Positions 7,087 through 46,875 are shown, numbered from the stretch's first letter. The stretch is 64,000 nucleotides of DNA from Candidatus Eremiobacterota bacterium (GCA_019235885.1 JAFAKB010000091.1:1-64000); one strand, 5' to 3'. A program made the numbers and translations. The notes: a model not told the origin generated them from the letters alone.

Positions 7087-7226
7087 CGGCGGGGTCCGGC
7101 GCAGAGTCGACCGTGCTGCGCTATCGTTCCGCCGCGCATTGCGAAGGTCGGGTAGCCCTTCGCACGACGAACGATATCACACCGGTTCCCGCCGGAGAAG
7201 ACCTCAAATGAGTTGCGACAGCGCAT

Positions 7227-7240
7227 ATGCGTAAACGCAT
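7227..7240. promoter_or_regulatory. 14-bp inverted repeat, possible operator
   Basis: ATGCGT-AA-ACGCAT, a perfect 6-bp inverted repeat with a 2-base spacer, sits in the AT-richer part of the intergenic region upstream of the quinate-dehydrogenase-like gene. Size and symmetry suit a dimeric regulator site. No regulator is identifiable. Confidence 0.35.
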
Positions 7241-7287
7241 AAACTCGGAAAATGGGACGGGCACCGCGCTCGATGAACGCGATGCCC

Positions 7288-7344
7288 GCGATGGTGTGCG
7301 AGCCGTTGAGACCAGATCCGAGGACCATCGTAGCACACCCTCGC
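7288..7344. repeat. imperfect 12-bp inverted repeat
   Basis: GCGATGGTGTGC at 7288-7299 pairs with GCACACCCTCGC at 7333-7344, one mismatch in 12, with a 33-base interior. It could fold in the leader of the downstream transcript. Function unknown. Confidence 0.3.
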
Positions 7345-7426
7345 ATGCCGGACAACCGCCATGCGGCTGGAGGGAGCGGGAATCGATGCCGATCACGCGC
7401 TCGACAGCGTTCCGAAAGGTCCGGCG

Positions 7427-8374
7427 GTGAAAAAAGTCGTCTCGGTTTCGCTGGGGTCGGCGTCGCGGGATCATCGCGCGGAGGTCGAGCTGCTCGGGGA
7501 GCGGTTCGACATCTCGCGCGTCGGGACGGACGGCTCGATCGACAAGGCGATCGCGAAGCTCAAAGAGCTGGACGGCACGGTCGACGCGATCGGGCTCGGC
7601 GGGATCGACGTCTACCTGTACGCCGGCAACGACCGCTACGCGCTGCGCGACGGGCTCCGCCTGCTCGACGCGGTGAAAAAGACGCCGGTCGTCGACGGGA
7701 GCGGCTTGAAGAACACGCTCGAGCGCAACGCGGTCGCGTTCATGCAGCGCGCGCTCGGGATCGAGCTGCGCGGGAAGCGCGTGCTGATGGTCAGCGCGCT
7801 CGACCGCTTCGGGATGGCGCAGGCGCTGGTGCAGGCCGGCGCGGACGTCGTCTTCGGCGACTTCATCTTCGCGCTCGATCTCGACCGGCCGGTGCGCGGG
7901 CTCGACGAGTTCGAGGAGATGGCGCGCAAGTATCTGCCCGACGCGTGCAAGCTTCCCTTTCAGTTCTTCTATCCGACCGGGAAGAAACAAGACCGGCCGC
8001 CGCAGCCGAAATACCCCGAGTACTACGAGGACGCCGAGATCGTCGCCGGCGACTACCACTTCATGCGGCAGTTCATGCCCGACCGGCTCGACGGCAAGAC
8101 GATCCTCACCAACACCGTCACCGCGAGCGACGTCGACTTTCTGCGCGAGCGCGGGATCGCGCGGCTGGTGACGACGACGCCGGACTTCGGCGGCCGCTCC
8201 TTCGGCACGAACGTCGTCGAGGCGGCGATGCTGGCGCTGCTCGGAAAGCGCTGGTCCGAGGTGACCGAGGACGACTACCGCACACTGCTCGCGCAGCTCG
8301 ATTTGAAGCCGCGCGTCATCGAGTTCCAGGTGGATTCGCGGTCCTCGCTTCGCTCCGGTCCGCAGGCCATTTGA
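7427..8374 (+). CDS. quinate 5-dehydrogenase-like protein
   Basis: Resembles proteins annotated as quinate 5-dehydrogenase in Firmicutes and related bacteria. Recognisable blocks are KKVVSVSLGSASRDH at the N-terminus, the IGTDG-type segment (here VGTDGSIDKAI), DAIGLGGIDVYLYAG, TPVVDGSGLKNTLER, and a Rossmann-like strand RVLMVSALDRFGMAQAL near residue 120. The start is GTG 7427 because AAAGG lies about 8 bases upstream and the homologous N-terminus starts at KKVVSVS; earlier ATGs add unrelated residues. The product is then about 315 residues. The stop overlaps the permease start as TTGA, so the two genes are translationally coupled. The real substrate is unproven; the annotation is by family resemblance. 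Confidence 0.68.
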   Translation: MKKVVSVSLGSASRDHRAEVELLGERFDISRVGTDGSIDKAIAKLKELDGTVDAIGLGGIDVYLYAGNDRYALRDGLRLLDAVKKTPVVDGSGLKNTLERNAVAFMQRALGIELRGKRVLMVSALDRFGMAQALVQAGADVVFGDFIFALDLDRPVRGLDEFEEMARKYLPDACKLPFQFFYPTGKKQDRPPQPKYPEYYEDAEIVAGDYHFMRQFMPDRLDGKTILTNTVTASDVDFLRERGIARLVTTTPDFGGRSFGTNVVEAAMLALLGKRWSEVTEDDYRTLLAQLDLKPRVIEFQVDSRSSLRSGPQAI

Positions 8375-41659: not shown

Positions 41660-41791
41660 TCAGCCGCAGCCGCAGACCCAGTGGCCGTTTACGAAACGGC
41701 AGATGAGCGGACACGCCGCCGCCGGCTGAGGCGGTGAGGCGTACGTGAACAGAAGCGCCGCGGCAAGCGCGCCGAGAAGCAGCCGTTTCAT
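41660..41791 (-). CDS. small secreted Cys-rich peptide (43 residues)
   Basis: Starts at MKRLLLGALAAALLFTYASPPQPAAA, a signal peptide that would leave a mature piece of 17 residues, CPLICRFVNGHWVCGCG, with four cysteines. Cleavage before the first Cys (AAA-C) also resembles a weak lipobox. An upstream in-frame extension lacks a start signal. It follows the 62-residue Cys-rich gene by 5 bases on the same strand, so the two form a small operon. Could be a disulfide-rich or modified peptide; no family recognised. Confidence 0.65.
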   Translation of the reverse strand: MKRLLLGALAAALLFTYASPPQPAAACPLICRFVNGHWVCGCG

Positions 41792-41796
41792 GACGG

Positions 41797-41985
41797 TCAC
41801 GCCTTCACGCAGAAGCAGCCGTATTTGTTGCAGCGATACACGTAGCCGGGCTGACACGTGATGAACGACGTTGCCGGCGTGAACGCTGCGGAGCGCGGCT
41901 GCGCGCCGGTACCGGGTGTCGCGGCGAGCACTGCCGCCGCCAGAAAGAGAGCGCCTGCGATACGTTTCCCGAGCATAGTCGACAT
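41797..41985 (-). CDS. small secreted Cys-rich peptide (62 residues)
   Basis: The ATG at 41985 is fixed by GGAGG 5 bases upstream (41991-41995); the TTG that opens the frame further lies inside that ribosome binding site. MLGKRIAGALFLAAAVLAATPGTGA is a signal peptide. The mature part ends ITCQPGYVYRCNKYGCFCVKA with four cysteines, the last two as C-x-C, as in the downstream 43-residue peptide. The pair lies just downstream of a radical SAM/SPASM gene, but separated from it by a hairpin. Confidence 0.68.
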   Translation of the reverse strand: MSTMLGKRIAGALFLAAAVLAATPGTGAQPRSAAFTPATSFITCQPGYVYRCNKYGCFCVKA

Positions 41986-42105: not shown

Positions 42106-43518
42106 TCAGGTTGCGCTGAGCGCCGCGAGCAGCACGTCGGCGGCGCTTCGCGCGGCGCGCATCGCGTCGTCGTGGTGCGCTTGTGCCTGCGCGATGTCGG
42201 CGGCGCAGAACGGGCAGGCCGGCGTTCCGGCGAAGACGTGGCGGAAGCAGCTGTAGCAGACGATCAGCTCGCCGCTCGCACCCGCGTCGCGCGGCGTAAG
42301 GTCGAGCGGGACGACGTCCGCGGGACGGCCGTCGCTCGTCTCGACGACGATTTCGAACAGCCCGAAGTCGAACGAAGTCCCCGGCGCAGCCGCGACCTGG
42401 CGCACCGATTCGCGCAAGCCTTGCCGCGCGAGCTCTTCCGCACGGTGGTGGCAGTACGGGTTCTCGCCGGGCTTGCCGAACATGCTGTGCGACATCCAGG
42501 TGCAGCCCGCGCGGCAGACGCTGGCATAGTAGCACGACTTGCAGAAGCCCCAGTTCGCGCTCTCGCCGCGCGCGAACGCGATCTGCGGCGCGGTGTTCCA
42601 GATCGTCGTCAGATCGATCTCGTGCGTGTTGCCGCCCACGTAGCCGTCGGTCGGCAGCGACGGACAGCCTTTCACGTTGCCGTCCGCTTCGATGCCCATC
42701 ACGTTTTGGCCGCCCGGACAGCCGGCGTAGTGAACGCTCTCCAAACCGGTGCCGCGCAGCCGTCCTTCGTACGGGCCGAAGTAGCCGATGTTGTTCGCCG
42801 GCTGCATCAGCACGCCGTGGTCGTGCGCGCGGCGCTGCAGGGCGGCCAGCTTCGGCATCAGCTCCAGCATCTGGTGCGGCTGCAGCATCATCGCCCAGTT
42901 CTCGCTGGCGCGTCCCATCGGAACGGTGAGCGCGATCTGCCACGCTTGGGCGCCGGCGTCGATGAGCACGTCCAGGATCGCGTCGAGCTGCTCGAACGAC
43001 CGCTTCGTGATCGCGGTGTTGGCGCCGGCCGGGATGCCGTGCGCGCGCAAGCGCTTCAGCGAGGCGACGGCGGCGTCGAACGAGCCGGGGACGCCGCGCA
43101 GCGCGTCGTGCACCTCGCGCAGCCCGTCGATCGAGATCCCGGCCGCCTTCAAGCCCGCCGCTTTCGCGGCGCGAACGCGCTCTTCGGTGAGATTGCGCCC
43201 GCCGCTCTGCAGCGTGCACTCGATCCCGGCCGCGGTGATCGCGGCGATGATCTGCGCGAAGTCCCTGCGCAGGTACGCCTCGCCGCCGATCAGCGTGATC
43301 TCGCGCGTGCCGAGCGCGGCGAGCTGCGCGACGACGTCGAGACACTCCGCCGTCGTCAGCTCGTGCGGGCGTTTGCGGCCGGCGCGCGAGCCGCAGTGCC
43401 CGCACTTCAGGTCGCACGCCAGCGTGATCTCCCACACCACGTGCACCGGGCGGTGCGCCGCGCGGTCGAGATCGGTGACGTACCGATTCGGCTTCGGCGC
43501 ACCACCCGTGTCGCGCAT
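42106..43518 (-). CDS. radical SAM/SPASM peptide maturase-like enzyme 1, with C-terminal zinc ribbon
   Basis: 470 residues. The SAM cluster motif is TLACDLKCGHCGSRAG (CxxxCxxC near residue 35), followed by GGEAYLRRDF and ISIDG. The SPASM region spans about 280-350: GCPGGQNVMGIEADGNVKGCPSLPTDGYVGG and GFCKSCYYASVCRAGCTWMSHS, giving cysteines for auxiliary clusters. The end has CYSCFRHVFAGTPACPFC, a CX2C-X9-CX2C zinc ribbon, then a helical tail. It starts 5 bases after the upstream DUF1843-like peptide gene. The neighbour relation suggests it modifies that peptide. Nearly the same protein is encoded again just upstream. Confidence 0.92.
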   Translation of the reverse strand: MRDTGGAPKPNRYVTDLDRAAHRPVHVVWEITLACDLKCGHCGSRAGRKRPHELTTAECLDVVAQLAALGTREITLIGGEAYLRRDFAQIIAAITAAGIECTLQSGGRNLTEERVRAAKAAGLKAAGISIDGLREVHDALRGVPGSFDAAVASLKRLRAHGIPAGANTAITKRSFEQLDAILDVLIDAGAQAWQIALTVPMGRASENWAMMLQPHQMLELMPKLAALQRRAHDHGVLMQPANNIGYFGPYEGRLRGTGLESVHYAGCPGGQNVMGIEADGNVKGCPSLPTDGYVGGNTHEIDLTTIWNTAPQIAFARGESANWGFCKSCYYASVCRAGCTWMSHSMFGKPGENPYCHHRAEELARQGLRESVRQVAAAPGTSFDFGLFEIVVETSDGRPADVVPLDLTPRDAGASGELIVCYSCFRHVFAGTPACPFCAADIAQAQAHHDDAMRAARSAADVLLAALSAT

Positions 43519-43523
43519 CGCCG

Positions 43524-43754
43524 CTATCCGGCTTTGTTGAGCGCAGCCTCGAGCTCTTTGAGCGCGTCTTCGACTTCCTTGACTTTCTCCTGGGACGCGC
43601 CTTCCTTTTTCTGCAGCGCCGCGCGGGCCTCGGCGGCGATCTTGCGCATCTCTTCCTTGTCGCCGCGCTTGATGCAATCGTGGATGATCACGCCGTAGAA
43701 CGCATGGATCGGCCGCCCGTCGCCGCCGTAGCCGCCACCTGACTGATATGACAT
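43524..43754 (-). CDS. DUF1843-like small protein 1 (putative maturase substrate)
   Basis: 76 residues. A Gly-rich N-terminus (MSYQSGGGYGG) is followed by the DUF1843-type helix pair: PIHAFYGVIIHDCIKRGDKEEMRKIAAEARAALQKK, then a charged coiled tail EKVKEVEDALKELEAALNKAG. The YGVxIHDxIKRGDxxEM pattern is the family core. GAAGGA stands about 9 bases upstream of the ATG. Direct pairing with the radical SAM gene suggests it is the precursor or partner peptide. Confidence 0.7.
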   Translation of the reverse strand: MSYQSGGGYGGDGRPIHAFYGVIIHDCIKRGDKEEMRKIAAEARAALQKKEGASQEKVKEVEDALKELEAALNKAG

Positions 43755-43873
43755 GAGCTCGTCCTTCCCGGAGGTCGAGAGGTAGTAGGGGAGGCTCGCT
43801 TTACCAGGCATTCCGGTCGGCTTCCTGCAACCGCAGCAAGGCCGAGCCGGCGGCCATGCGGATCGTGCGGCCG

Positions 43874-45295
43874 TTACCGGGCGGGCAGCCGCTCGAGCGC
43901 CGACAGGCGCACCAACAGGAGCTGCGCCGCCGCGCGGGCTTCGGCCAGCACCGCGGCATGGCGCTCGCGCGCCGCCTCGACGCCGGCGCCGCAGAACGGG
44001 CACTCCGTGGTGCCCGCAAAGACGTGCCGCCGGCAGCCGTAGCAGACGACGAGCCGCTCGCGATTCGCGTTCGCGTCACGCGGCGTCGAGTCGGTTGCCT
44101 CGACCGCGCTCGCGGCGCCGTCGCGCGTCTCGACGATCAGCTCGAAGCGGCCGTGGTCGAACGGCGTGCCGGGCGCCGCTGCGACCTGGCGGATCCGCTC
44201 GCGCAGCCCTTGCCGCTCCAGCTCGAGCGCGCGGTGGTGGCAGAACGGGTTGTTGCCGGGTTTTCCGAGCAGGCTGTGCGCCATCCAGGTGCAGCCGCCG
44301 CGGCAGACGTCCTGGTAATAGCAGCTCTTGCAGAATCCCCACTGCGGCTCGCGGCGCTCGCGCGAGAACGAGAGCTCAGGCGTCTCGAGCCAGATCGTCG
44401 TGAGATCGAACTCGCGCACGTTGCCGCCGGCGTACGCGTCGGTCGGCAGCGAGGGACAGCCTTTCACCGTCCCGTCGGCCTCGATCCCGATCGTGTTCTG
44501 CCCTCCGAGACAGCCTTCGTAGTGAACCGCTTCGAAGCCGTTTCCGCGCAGCTCGCCTTCGTGCGGGCCGAAGTAGCCGACGTTGTTGCCAATCTGCAGC
44601 AGCACGCCGCTGCGCGCAGCGCGCTCGAAGAGCGCGGCGAGCTTCGGCAGCACCTCGAGCATCTGGTACGGCTGAAGGATCATCTCGGGGTGATCGCCGG
44701 CGCGCCCCATCGGAACCGTGAGCTGCAGCTGCCAGTTCTTCGCGCCCGCCGCGATGACGACGTCGAGCACGTCGTCGAGCTCCTCCAAGACGTGCGCGGT
44801 GATCTGCGTGTTCACGCTGGTCGGAAGACCGTGCTCGCGCAGGCGGTGCAGCGCAGCGACCGCAGCGTCGAACGAGCCGCGCACGCCGCGCAGCTCGTCG
44901 TGCAGCGCGCGCGTTCCGTCGAGCGAGATGCCGGCCGCGGTCAAGCCCGCTTCGACGGCGGCGGCGATCCGCGCGTCGTTCAGGTTGCGCCCGCCGCTCT
45001 GCAGCGTGCACTGCATCCCGGCGGCGCGGACGGCGGCGATGATCTGCGCGAAGTCGCGGCGCAGGTACGCTTCGCCGCCGATCAGCGTGACCTCGCGCGT
45101 CCCCAGCGCCGCCAGCTCGGCGACGACCTGCAGGCACTCCTCGGTCGAAAGCTCTTTCGCGCGCGCTTTGCCGGCGCGCGAGCCGCAGTGCCCGCATTTC
45201 AGATCGCACGCGAGCGTGATCTCCCAGACGGCGTGCACCGGCCGGGACGCGGACCGGTCGAGCCGCGTGAGGAAGCGGTTCGGCCGGTCCCTCAC
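43874..45295 (-). CDS. radical SAM/SPASM peptide maturase-like enzyme 2, with C-terminal zinc ribbon
   Basis: 473 residues, a close paralogue of enzyme 1. It starts at a GTG 2 bases after the stop of DUF1843-like protein 2, so the two are coupled. Motifs: TLACDLKCGHCGSRAG, GGEAYLRRDF, ISLDGTRALHDELRG, GCLGGQNTIGIEADGTVKGCPSLPTDAYAGG, GFCKSCYYQDVCRGGCTWMAHS, and the zinc ribbon CYGCRRHVFAGTTECPFC near the end. The cluster cysteines are all present. Longer upstream starts run into the peptide gene and are unlikely. Confidence 0.92.
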   Translation of the reverse strand: MRDRPNRFLTRLDRSASRPVHAVWEITLACDLKCGHCGSRAGKARAKELSTEECLQVVAELAALGTREVTLIGGEAYLRRDFAQIIAAVRAAGMQCTLQSGGRNLNDARIAAAVEAGLTAAGISLDGTRALHDELRGVRGSFDAAVAALHRLREHGLPTSVNTQITAHVLEELDDVLDVVIAAGAKNWQLQLTVPMGRAGDHPEMILQPYQMLEVLPKLAALFERAARSGVLLQIGNNVGYFGPHEGELRGNGFEAVHYEGCLGGQNTIGIEADGTVKGCPSLPTDAYAGGNVREFDLTTIWLETPELSFSRERREPQWGFCKSCYYQDVCRGGCTWMAHSLLGKPGNNPFCHHRALELERQGLRERIRQVAAAPGTPFDHGRFELIVETRDGAASAVEATDSTPRDANANRERLVVCYGCRRHVFAGTTECPFCGAGVEAARERHAAVLAEARAAAQLLLVRLSALERLPAR

Positions 45296-45297
45296 CG

Positions 45298-45597
45298 TCA
45301 GCTTTGTTCCGGCGGTTGCTGCGCCTTCGAGGCCCGCAGCTCGTTGATCTTTCCTTCGAGGTGGGTGAGCGCTTCGCGAACCTCGACGACTTCGTGCGAC
45401 GCGCACTCGCGGAAATGCGTCGCCGCCGACGAGGTCGACTCCGAAATCTGCACGCCTTCTTGCGCGGCGCTGCGCGCGATCGCGTGCCGCGCGGCGTCGG
45501 CAATGTGCTCCATCTCTTGCAGGTCGCCGCGTTTGGCGGCATCCCAGATCGCCGGCCCGTAGGGCGGCAGCGGTCCGCGGTCGGTGTTCTCAGCCAT
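45298..45597 (-). CDS. DUF1843-like small protein 2 (GDL-type, putative maturase substrate)
   Basis: 99 residues with GAGGAA about 6 bases before the ATG. PPYGPAIWDAAKRGDLQEMEHIADAARHAIA is the DUF1843-like core with the GDL motif. The middle is Ser/Thr-rich and includes ATHFRECASHEV with one Cys, and the C-terminal part is a charged helix ending in KAQQPPEQS. I recall GDL-motif peptides being paired with radical SAM/SPASM maturases, but could not search. It is the first gene of the duplicated cassette. Confidence 0.7.
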   Translation of the reverse strand: MAENTDRGPLPPYGPAIWDAAKRGDLQEMEHIADAARHAIARSAAQEGVQISESTSSAATHFRECASHEVVEVREALTHLEGKINELRASKAQQPPEQS

Positions 45598-46137: not shown

Positions 46138-46875
46138 ATGTTGCCCATGACGCCACCTGCGATCGTTGCACAGGCAGCGAAGGCAGGTGTACCACACCGC
46201 CTCATAGTTCTTCAACCGGAGCAACCCTATACCGTGACAACCGGAGACGTCATTGAAATCCCTCTCTTTGATGGCAACATCGATCCGAGCACAGTCTCGC
46301 GTCGTGAGCTGCGGCCACTCGGCATGGTGAAATTGCCGTTGGAGACGTATGCAATTGGAAACGCCAAGACGAGCTCACATCGTGGAGCGGCATTTCTCGT
46401 CGTCGGGAGACCGACAGCGAGCTTTGAAACTCTAGGCGTCGTGTTAAAGATGCCCCAACTCAAGATCGCGAGCGCAAGTCAGCGTTACCTGCATTTCATG
46501 TACCGAGTGGTGAAAACCGAGCCTCCGCGACTCGGCGCGAGCAAAGGTGGGAATTTGGCAACGCCGTCCGCGTCCGACAGCTGGTGTCTCGCAGAGAAGC
46601 AGCAATGGATGTTTCGAAAACAGAACTTCAGCTTGGACGATGCTTCCATTCGAGCGGCATATCACGAAGAGGGATGCGACCGCCTCGGGCGGATCGATTT
46701 GATTCCGAGCAAAGGTGGGAATTCGGCAACGCCGTCCCGCGCGTCCGACAGCTGGTGTCTCGCAGAGAAGCAGCAATGGGCGTTTCGAAAACAGAACTTC
46801 AACGTCGACGACAAATCCATTCGAGCGGCGTATCACGAACAGAGATGCGACCGTCTCGGACCGATCGATCGCTAG
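46138..46875 (+). CDS. hypothetical protein with two tandem 56-residue repeats, AT-richer
   Basis: 245 residues, GGGAGG 5 bases before the ATG. The N-terminal 130 residues (LIVLQPEQPYTVTTGDVIEIPLFDG, RELRPLGMVKLPLETYAIGNAKTSSHRGAAFLVVGRP) look like a beta-rich domain. Then a unit beginning SKGGN and containing ASDSWCLAEKQQW, FRKQNF, IRAAYHE and CDRLG occurs twice. Codon use is clearly less GC-rich than the rest of the window, suggesting transfer. It is alone on this strand and no homologue is recognised. The preceding stretch is the structured RNA candidate. Confidence 0.7.
   Translation: MLPMTPPAIVAQAAKAGVPHRLIVLQPEQPYTVTTGDVIEIPLFDGNIDPSTVSRRELRPLGMVKLPLETYAIGNAKTSSHRGAAFLVVGRPTASFETLGVVLKMPQLKIASASQRYLHFMYRVVKTEPPRLGASKGGNLATPSASDSWCLAEKQQWMFRKQNFSLDDASIRAAYHEEGCDRLGRIDLIPSKGGNSATPSRASDSWCLAEKQQWAFRKQNFNVDDKSIRAAYHEQRCDRLGPIDR
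46539..46872 (+). repeat. 168-bp tandem duplication inside the hypothetical gene
   Basis: Copies start at 46539 and 46707, each beginning GAGCAAAGGTGGGAATT and keeping long identical blocks (GCAGAGAAGCAGCAATGG, TTTCGAAAACAGAACTTCA). The second copy has one extra codon and about a dozen substitutions. The frame is preserved. Confidence 0.9.

What the first reader, a model, noticed from the sequence alone, without database searches (positions are those of the whole stretch)
42106..45597. Duplicated cassette: DUF1843-like peptide plus radical SAM/SPASM enzyme
Two copies of small helical peptide then radical SAM enzyme lie in tandem on one strand, each pair separated by only 2-5 bases. The enzymes are close paralogues with full CxxxCxxC and SPASM cysteine sets; the peptides are much more diverged. 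That is the pattern expected if each enzyme co-evolves with its own substrate. I recall GDL-motif peptides linked to such maturases, but the product is not known to me.
Basis: partly seen in the sequence, partly recalled or inferred. Interest (0 to 1): 0.75.

Follow-up and report, generated by a model that had tools for sequence, protein, structure and literature searches.

The report
Paired tyramine-splicing peptide cassettes (predicted)
Two neighbouring gene pairs in a soil bacterium (Candidatus Eremiobacterota) each encode a small helical protein and a radical enzyme that probably cuts most of one tyrosine out of its backbone, leaving a reactive ketone; this is a member of a known kind of system whose biological role is still unknown.

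Summary
On the minus strand lie pep1 (99 aa) with rSAM1, then pep2 (76 aa) with rSAM2. Both peptides pass Pfam DUF1843. Both enzymes are radical SAM/SPASM proteins, 67% identical, best matching TIGR03913 ("GDL motif peptide-associated maturase") but scoring below its equivalog cut-off. New here: (1) the most conserved feature of the peptides is not GDL but X-Tyr-Gly/Ala (Tyr in 207/207 relatives), at the cap of the first helix. (2) The next closest enzyme family, TIGR04103, is the PlpX-type splicease group, which acts on X-Tyr-Gly. Related enzymes beside unrelated substrates (Nif11, lipoprotein-like, repeats) also face an X-Y-G. [quoted passage not shown] (3) DUF1843-type enzymes carry a C-terminal CxxC...CPxC ribbon; in two Myxococcota loci it sits on the substrate instead, so it is probably a docking module. 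Chemistry and role are untested; spliceases were surveyed in a 2022 paper I could not read. Novelty is modest.

The parts
45298..45597 (-). pep1, 99 aa DUF1843 peptide of cassette 1 (PPYG...RGDL)
   Evidence: orthologue 66% identical beside the enzyme in G008/L023
45556..45564 (-). Predicted splice site P12-Y13-G14 of pep1
   Evidence: Tyr invariant in 207 relatives
43874..45295 (-). rSAM1, radical SAM/SPASM maturase of cassette 1, 473 aa, GTG start
   Evidence: TIGR03913 556 bits, TIGR04103 445 bits; Pfam Radical_SAM and SPASM
43991..44044 (-). C-terminal zinc-ribbon-like motif of rSAM1 (CYGCRRHVFAGTTECPFC)
43524..43754 (-). pep2, 76 aa DUF1843 peptide of cassette 2 (AFYG...RGDK)
43692..43700 (-). 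Predicted splice site F19-Y20-G21 of pep2, at the start of helix 1 in the AlphaFold2 model
43725..43733 (-). Second, non-conserved G8-Y9-G10 in the disordered N-terminus of pep2; possible extra site
   Evidence: sequence; inference only
42106..43518 (-). rSAM2, radical SAM/SPASM maturase of cassette 2, 470 aa
   Evidence: TIGR03913 526 bits, TIGR04103 434 bits; fold like PqqE, SkfB, SuiB
42205..42258 (-). C-terminal zinc-ribbon-like motif of rSAM2 (CYSCFRHVFAGTPACPFC)
   Evidence: modelled at about 90 pLDDT

Best explanation
Each cassette makes one small three-helix protein and a dedicated radical SAM/SPASM enzyme. The enzyme docks its substrate (probably through the helix after the motif and its own C-terminal zinc ribbon, in place of the separate PlpY partner of PlpX), generates a 5'-deoxyadenosyl radical at the CxxxCxxC cluster, and acts on the conserved tyrosine of X-Tyr-Gly. 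[quoted passage not shown] There is no leader, signal peptide, protease or exporter gene in the cassette, so the product is probably a modified intracellular protein whose electrophilic ketone binds or inhibits a target (for example a protease) or cross-links. Shown: gene pairing, motif conservation, enzyme relationship. Inferred: docking, chemistry, function.
For: Best and second family hits TIGR03913 and TIGR04103 at 434-556 bits, the next family at 164-166 bits. A TIGR04103 enzyme on a Nostoc plasmid (46% identical) sits beside a Nif11 precursor ending ALYGLPPELF. PlpX acts on Xaa-Tyr-Gly with tyramine excision (PMC11002830; PMC10533398), and its tag PIRPLYGLPI resembles DUF1843 sites such as PRPLYGAPI. 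Tyr 207/207 and Gly/Ala 206/207 in relatives from several phyla. Loci of related enzymes lacking DUF1843 still have X-Y-G ORFs: PVYGAPMP repeats in L107, IYGGVFPDP in L094/L102, TLYGPP in L092. AlphaFold2 puts Y20 of pep2 at the first turn of helix 1 after a disordered N-terminus. [quoted passage not shown]
Against: No biochemistry on this subfamily could be read here. Half of the relatives have Tyr-Ala, not Tyr-Gly, which the papers read do not describe for PlpX. X = Pro in pep1 is not among the natural PlpX sites named there (MYG, LYG). No PlpY-like partner was found. Both enzymes fall below the TIGR03913 cut-off. The Tyr could be conserved as a helix cap, or be the site of another tyrosine reaction.
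Confidence: 0.7

Rival explanations
1. The enzyme modifies the conserved Tyr by a different radical reaction, such as oxidative decarboxylation, a C-C or C-O cross-link, or epimerisation near it, and DUF1843 is a RiPP-like substrate without splicing.
For: SPASM enzymes with the same architecture (PqqE, SkfB, SuiB) do other chemistry; they are the nearest solved folds. Tyr-Ala variants are common.
Against: PqqE, SkfB and mycofactocin families score about 100-141 bits against 434-556 for the splicease-related pair. X-Y-G is shared with the Nif11-type substrate of a TIGR04103 enzyme.
Confidence: 0.2
2. DUF1843 proteins are structural or assembly components, and the radical enzyme acts on something else or only activates a partner; Y-G is a helix cap.
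For: DUF1843 occurs as repeated paralogues in operons and was proposed as a self-assembling part (PMC10994174). The first turn of helix 1 begins at Tyr in the model.
Against: That study saw no oligomers. Unrelated putative substrates next to related enzymes keep only X-Y-G. DUF1843 is tied to the enzyme in nearly every case.
Confidence: 0.08
3. Cassette 2 is a decaying or non-functional copy, and only cassette 1 works (this can hold together with either chemistry).
For: pep2 lost the Leu of GDL, rSAM2 has the longer branch (0.38 vs 0.15), and G008 and G005 keep a single cassette, of type 1, in the same slot.
Against: All catalytic, SPASM and ribbon cysteines of rSAM2 are intact, its frame is open, and pep2 keeps YG and the helices.
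Confidence: 0.15

Closest known systems
[quoted passage not shown]
   Same: Best family hit; same peptide-then-enzyme order; same C-terminal ribbon; DUF1843 substrate over the Pfam cut-off.
   Different: Scores 556 and 526 bits, below the 591.75 equivalog cut-off. Two enzymes with one peptide each, where Pseudomonas, Burkholderia and Chromobacterium have up to three DUF1843 ORFs (two of them about 200 aa, apparently fused to DUF1842) and one enzyme. pep2 has GDK.
Spliceotide systems: PlpX/PlpY and TIGR04103 nif11-class maturase 3
   Same: Closest other enzyme family; X-Tyr-Gly site in the substrate; similar local sequence around the site.
   Different: No Nif11 or NHLP leader, no PlpY-like ORF, a zinc ribbon on the enzyme, and a helical substrate with the site near its N-terminus rather than in a C-terminal core.
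Q63NT7 of Burkholderia pseudomallei (DUF1842-DUF1843; structures 8t0b, 8t1m, 8t1n)
   Same: Carries a C-terminal DUF1843 domain.
   Different: Fused to DUF1842; the DUF1843 part was not resolved; expressed alone in E. coli as far as the passages read show.

Membership tests
Pfam DUF1843 (PF08898) | Score over the gathering cut-off of 23.3 bits | tested here: met
   27.4 (pep1) and 31.6 (pep2) bits
TIGR03913 GDL-peptide maturase | Score over the equivalog cut-off of 591.75 bits | tested here: not met
   556.4 and 526.0 bits; hence called TIGR03913-like
TIGR03913 GDL-peptide maturase | Adjacent DUF1843 (GDL) peptide | tested here: met
   GDL itself only in pep1
Radical SAM/SPASM enzymes | CxxxCxxC and the seven-cysteine SPASM set | tested here: met
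   fold match to PqqE, SkfB, SuiB
TIGR04103 nif11-class maturase 3 (PlpX-type) | Score over the cut-off of 725 bits | tested here: not met
   445.4 and 434.3 bits
Spliceotide system | X-Tyr-Gly motif in the substrate | tested here: met
   PYG and FYG
Spliceotide system | PlpY-type partner (truncated RRE) next to the enzyme | tested here: not met
   No such ORF between or just after the genes in the window
[quoted passage not shown]
   needs co-expression and mass spectrometry

The most novel reading that the evidence does not exclude
The whole DUF1843/DUF1842 family is a set of intracellular helical proteins that are permanently spliced at X-Tyr-Gly/Ala by ribbon-bearing spliceases, which recognise them without a leader; the ribbon is a mobile docking module that can sit on enzyme or substrate, and this organism runs two orthogonal enzyme-substrate pairs side by side.
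Probability: 0.35. Interest if true: 0.7.

Novelty: new member of a known kind. Interest (0 to 1): 0.45.

Why it matters
NCBI still annotates this enzyme only by its neighbour, and DUF1843/DUF1842 have no assigned function, although they are among strongly induced genes at the move to stationary phase in Burkholderia thailandensis and under quorum sensing in Chromobacterium. A concrete site and reaction (loss of about 135 Da at X-Y-G) turns that into a one-experiment question. The window pair would also be a natural test of whether ribbon-type spliceases are selective for their own substrate, useful for protein labelling through alpha-keto amides.

Tried and rejected
Recent tandem duplication: rejected, since rSAM2 lies outside the clade of rSAM1 and three single-cassette enzymes (95/84 support). 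Peptide divergence as evidence of co-evolution: rejected by comparison with the other cassettes. The two Cys-rich secreted ORFs downstream (41985-41800 and about 41790-41660) as part of the system: rejected for the first, which has a homologue on the contig of the flanking gene in G003, a genome without the enzyme, and is missing beside the cassettes of G008, G005 and G024; the second has no hit in those loci either. Third DUF1843 hit in the genome (C13): spurious, it lies in a flagellin-like frame and lacks the motif. Sequence search of pep2 against solved structures gave nothing useful beyond a weak DUF1842 entry. A first version of the motif pattern was mis-spaced and was corrected. Full texts of Scott 2022 and Richter 2024 are not held. 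Promoter and terminator scans gave no more than chance.

Full report
WHAT IS THERE. The window lies in a genome of Candidatus Eremiobacterota: its close relative G008, of the same genus, has a contig of the same length (1,929,581 bases) and position of the match as the record titled so (L023). On the minus strand, reading right to left: pep1 (45597-45298, 99 aa), rSAM1 (45295-43874, GTG start), pep2 (43754-43524, 76 aa), rSAM2 (43518-42106). The gaps are 2 and 5 bases within the pairs. Both peptides pass Pfam's cut-off for DUF1843. Both enzymes have Radical_SAM and SPASM domains, and all cluster cysteines.

ENZYME FAMILY. NCBIfam ranks TIGR03913 first (556 and 526 bits; cut-off 591.75, so not met) and TIGR04103, nif11-class maturase 3, second (445 and 434 bits); everything else is at or below 166 bits. 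That TIGR04103 is the PlpX group is my knowledge; the papers read say that PlpX is in InterPro IPR026482 and cuts tyramine out of Xaa-Tyr-Gly with PlpY. I checked it on one locus: a TIGR04103 enzyme on a Nostoc plasmid, 46% identical to rSAM2, sits between a Nif11 precursor that ends ALYGLPPELF and a 71-aa ORF in the place of PlpY.

THE SITE. I fetched 80 named loci, mainly from Eremiobacterota, Acidobacteriota, Pseudomonadota and Myxococcota, and plasmid loci including a Bacteroidota one. Of 86 enzyme loci, 77 gave a DUF1843-like ORF close by, upstream of the enzyme. In the 207 domains of the later alignment the Tyr is invariant, the next residue is Gly or Ala in 206, and the one before is mostly Leu, Pro or Met. 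In a set made non-redundant at 60% identity (17 sequences) the Tyr is the only fully invariant column; the Met after GDL, the Pro two before Tyr, and G and D of GDL come next. GDL is thus the second motif, not the first. The set was gathered by a model seeded with the two window peptides, so a family with no Tyr there would have been found less easily; but the independent Pfam search also found no enzyme-free group (below). In the AlphaFold2 model of pep2 (mean pLDDT 74) residues 1-19 are disordered and helix 1 starts at Tyr20.

UNRELATED SUBSTRATES, SAME SITE. Loci without a DUF1843 hit still encode an ORF with X-Y-G near the enzyme: five PVYGAP(M/F) repeats in L107, VYGG and VYGA in L106, three lipoprotein-like ORFs with LYG or IYG in L092, two ILYGVGIYG ORFs in L081, and IYGGVFPDPxTRARV at the C-terminus of ORFs in L094 and L102. 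Those of L106, L107, L094 and L102 look unrelated to DUF1843. Shared X-Y-G with unshared scaffold is what a modification site predicts, and is hard to explain by helix capping. L095, L099 and L108 gave no convincing candidate.

THE RIBBON. All full-length enzymes with DUF1843 neighbours end in CxxC...CPxC; rows without it are truncated, frameshifted (L086), or have other or unknown substrates (L094, L095, L102, L106-L108, L110, L112). In L094 and L102 the same motif is at the N-terminus of the putative substrate, and in L112 at the N-terminus of the enzyme. I infer a docking module that replaces PlpY. This is inference; no binding was tested, and metal binding is assumed from the four cysteines.

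CONVERSE TEST. In 149 genomes of the phylum, DUF1843 occurs in four, the same four that hold a close enzyme, and beside it; one further hit in the window's own genome is spurious. In 26 genomes and 2 plasmid records picked for having the enzyme, 53 of 54 DUF1843 copies over the cut-off are in an enzyme locus; one lies at a contig end. In evenly drawn samples of 120 and 199 genomes from two other groups, one further genome had DUF1843, again beside the enzyme.

HISTORY. G008 and G005 carry one cassette in the same slot, between flhA and a gene next to telA, facing away from that gene; G006 and G002 have that slot without the cassette. rSAM1 groups with the single-cassette enzymes (G008 81% identical); rSAM2 branches before those of G005 and G024 (support 95/84). 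The pair is old, or cassette 2 came from an unsampled relative. Peptide identity between the two cassettes (43%) is what other cassette pairs show at a similar enzyme distance (37-44%), so it says nothing special about co-evolution. Only 3 of 11 genomes in the genus and 1 of 50 others in the family have the enzyme: an optional trait.

FUNCTION. No signal peptide, protease or exporter belongs to the cassette. In Burkholderia thailandensis and Chromobacterium, DUF1842/DUF1843 genes are strongly induced towards stationary phase or by quorum sensing. Alpha-keto amides from spliceotides have been described as protease inhibitors (PMC11117315). I propose a retained, electrophilic intracellular protein, with low confidence as to target.

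NOVELTY. The family link is already in the NCBI name, and spliceases were reported as widespread, with 27 tested and 939 predicted systems (PMC10533398). A 2024 title on a conserved helix and leader-independent splicing may well cover this very type. I could read neither source paper. I therefore file this as a new member of a known kind.

Noticed in passing
L094 7158-7622, L102 about 7182-7640: Myxococcota lipoprotein-like ORFs with an N-terminal CxxCxRHV...CPFC ribbon and a C-terminal IYGGVFPDPxTRARV, just downstream of a PlpX/TIGR03913-like enzyme that itself lacks the ribbon: possible spliced surface proteins.
   Followed up: partly
L107 5014-5559 (G092, same phylum): ORF with five PVYGAP(M/F) repeats before a TIGR04103-like enzyme: looks like a multi-core spliceotide precursor. 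G092 holds three such enzymes.
   Followed up: partly
L112 5749-7371 (Tropicibacter oceani plasmid): Related radical SAM enzyme with the ribbon at its N-terminus, in a cluster with two more radical SAM genes and peptidases, and no DUF1843.
   Followed up: no
L092 126-1383: Three tandem lipoprotein-like ORFs, each with LYG or IYG followed by a DUF1843-like helical tail, before a ribbon-bearing enzyme (Myxococcota).
   Followed up: no
window 41660-41985: Two small secreted Cys-rich ORFs (ending CNKYGCFCVKA and CRFVNGHWVCGCG). The first has homologues in G002 and G003, which lack the enzyme.
   Followed up: partly
window 46138-46875: ORF of 245 aa with an internal direct repeat (SDSWCLAEKQQW...FRKQNF) and no Pfam match, in the gap between the cassettes and the telA-side genes.
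   Followed up: no
L025 / G024: Contig CAJCIN010000034.1 is labelled Rhodospirillales but has the length of, and matches, a contig of G024, a member of the window's own family: probably a mislabelled record.
   Followed up: no
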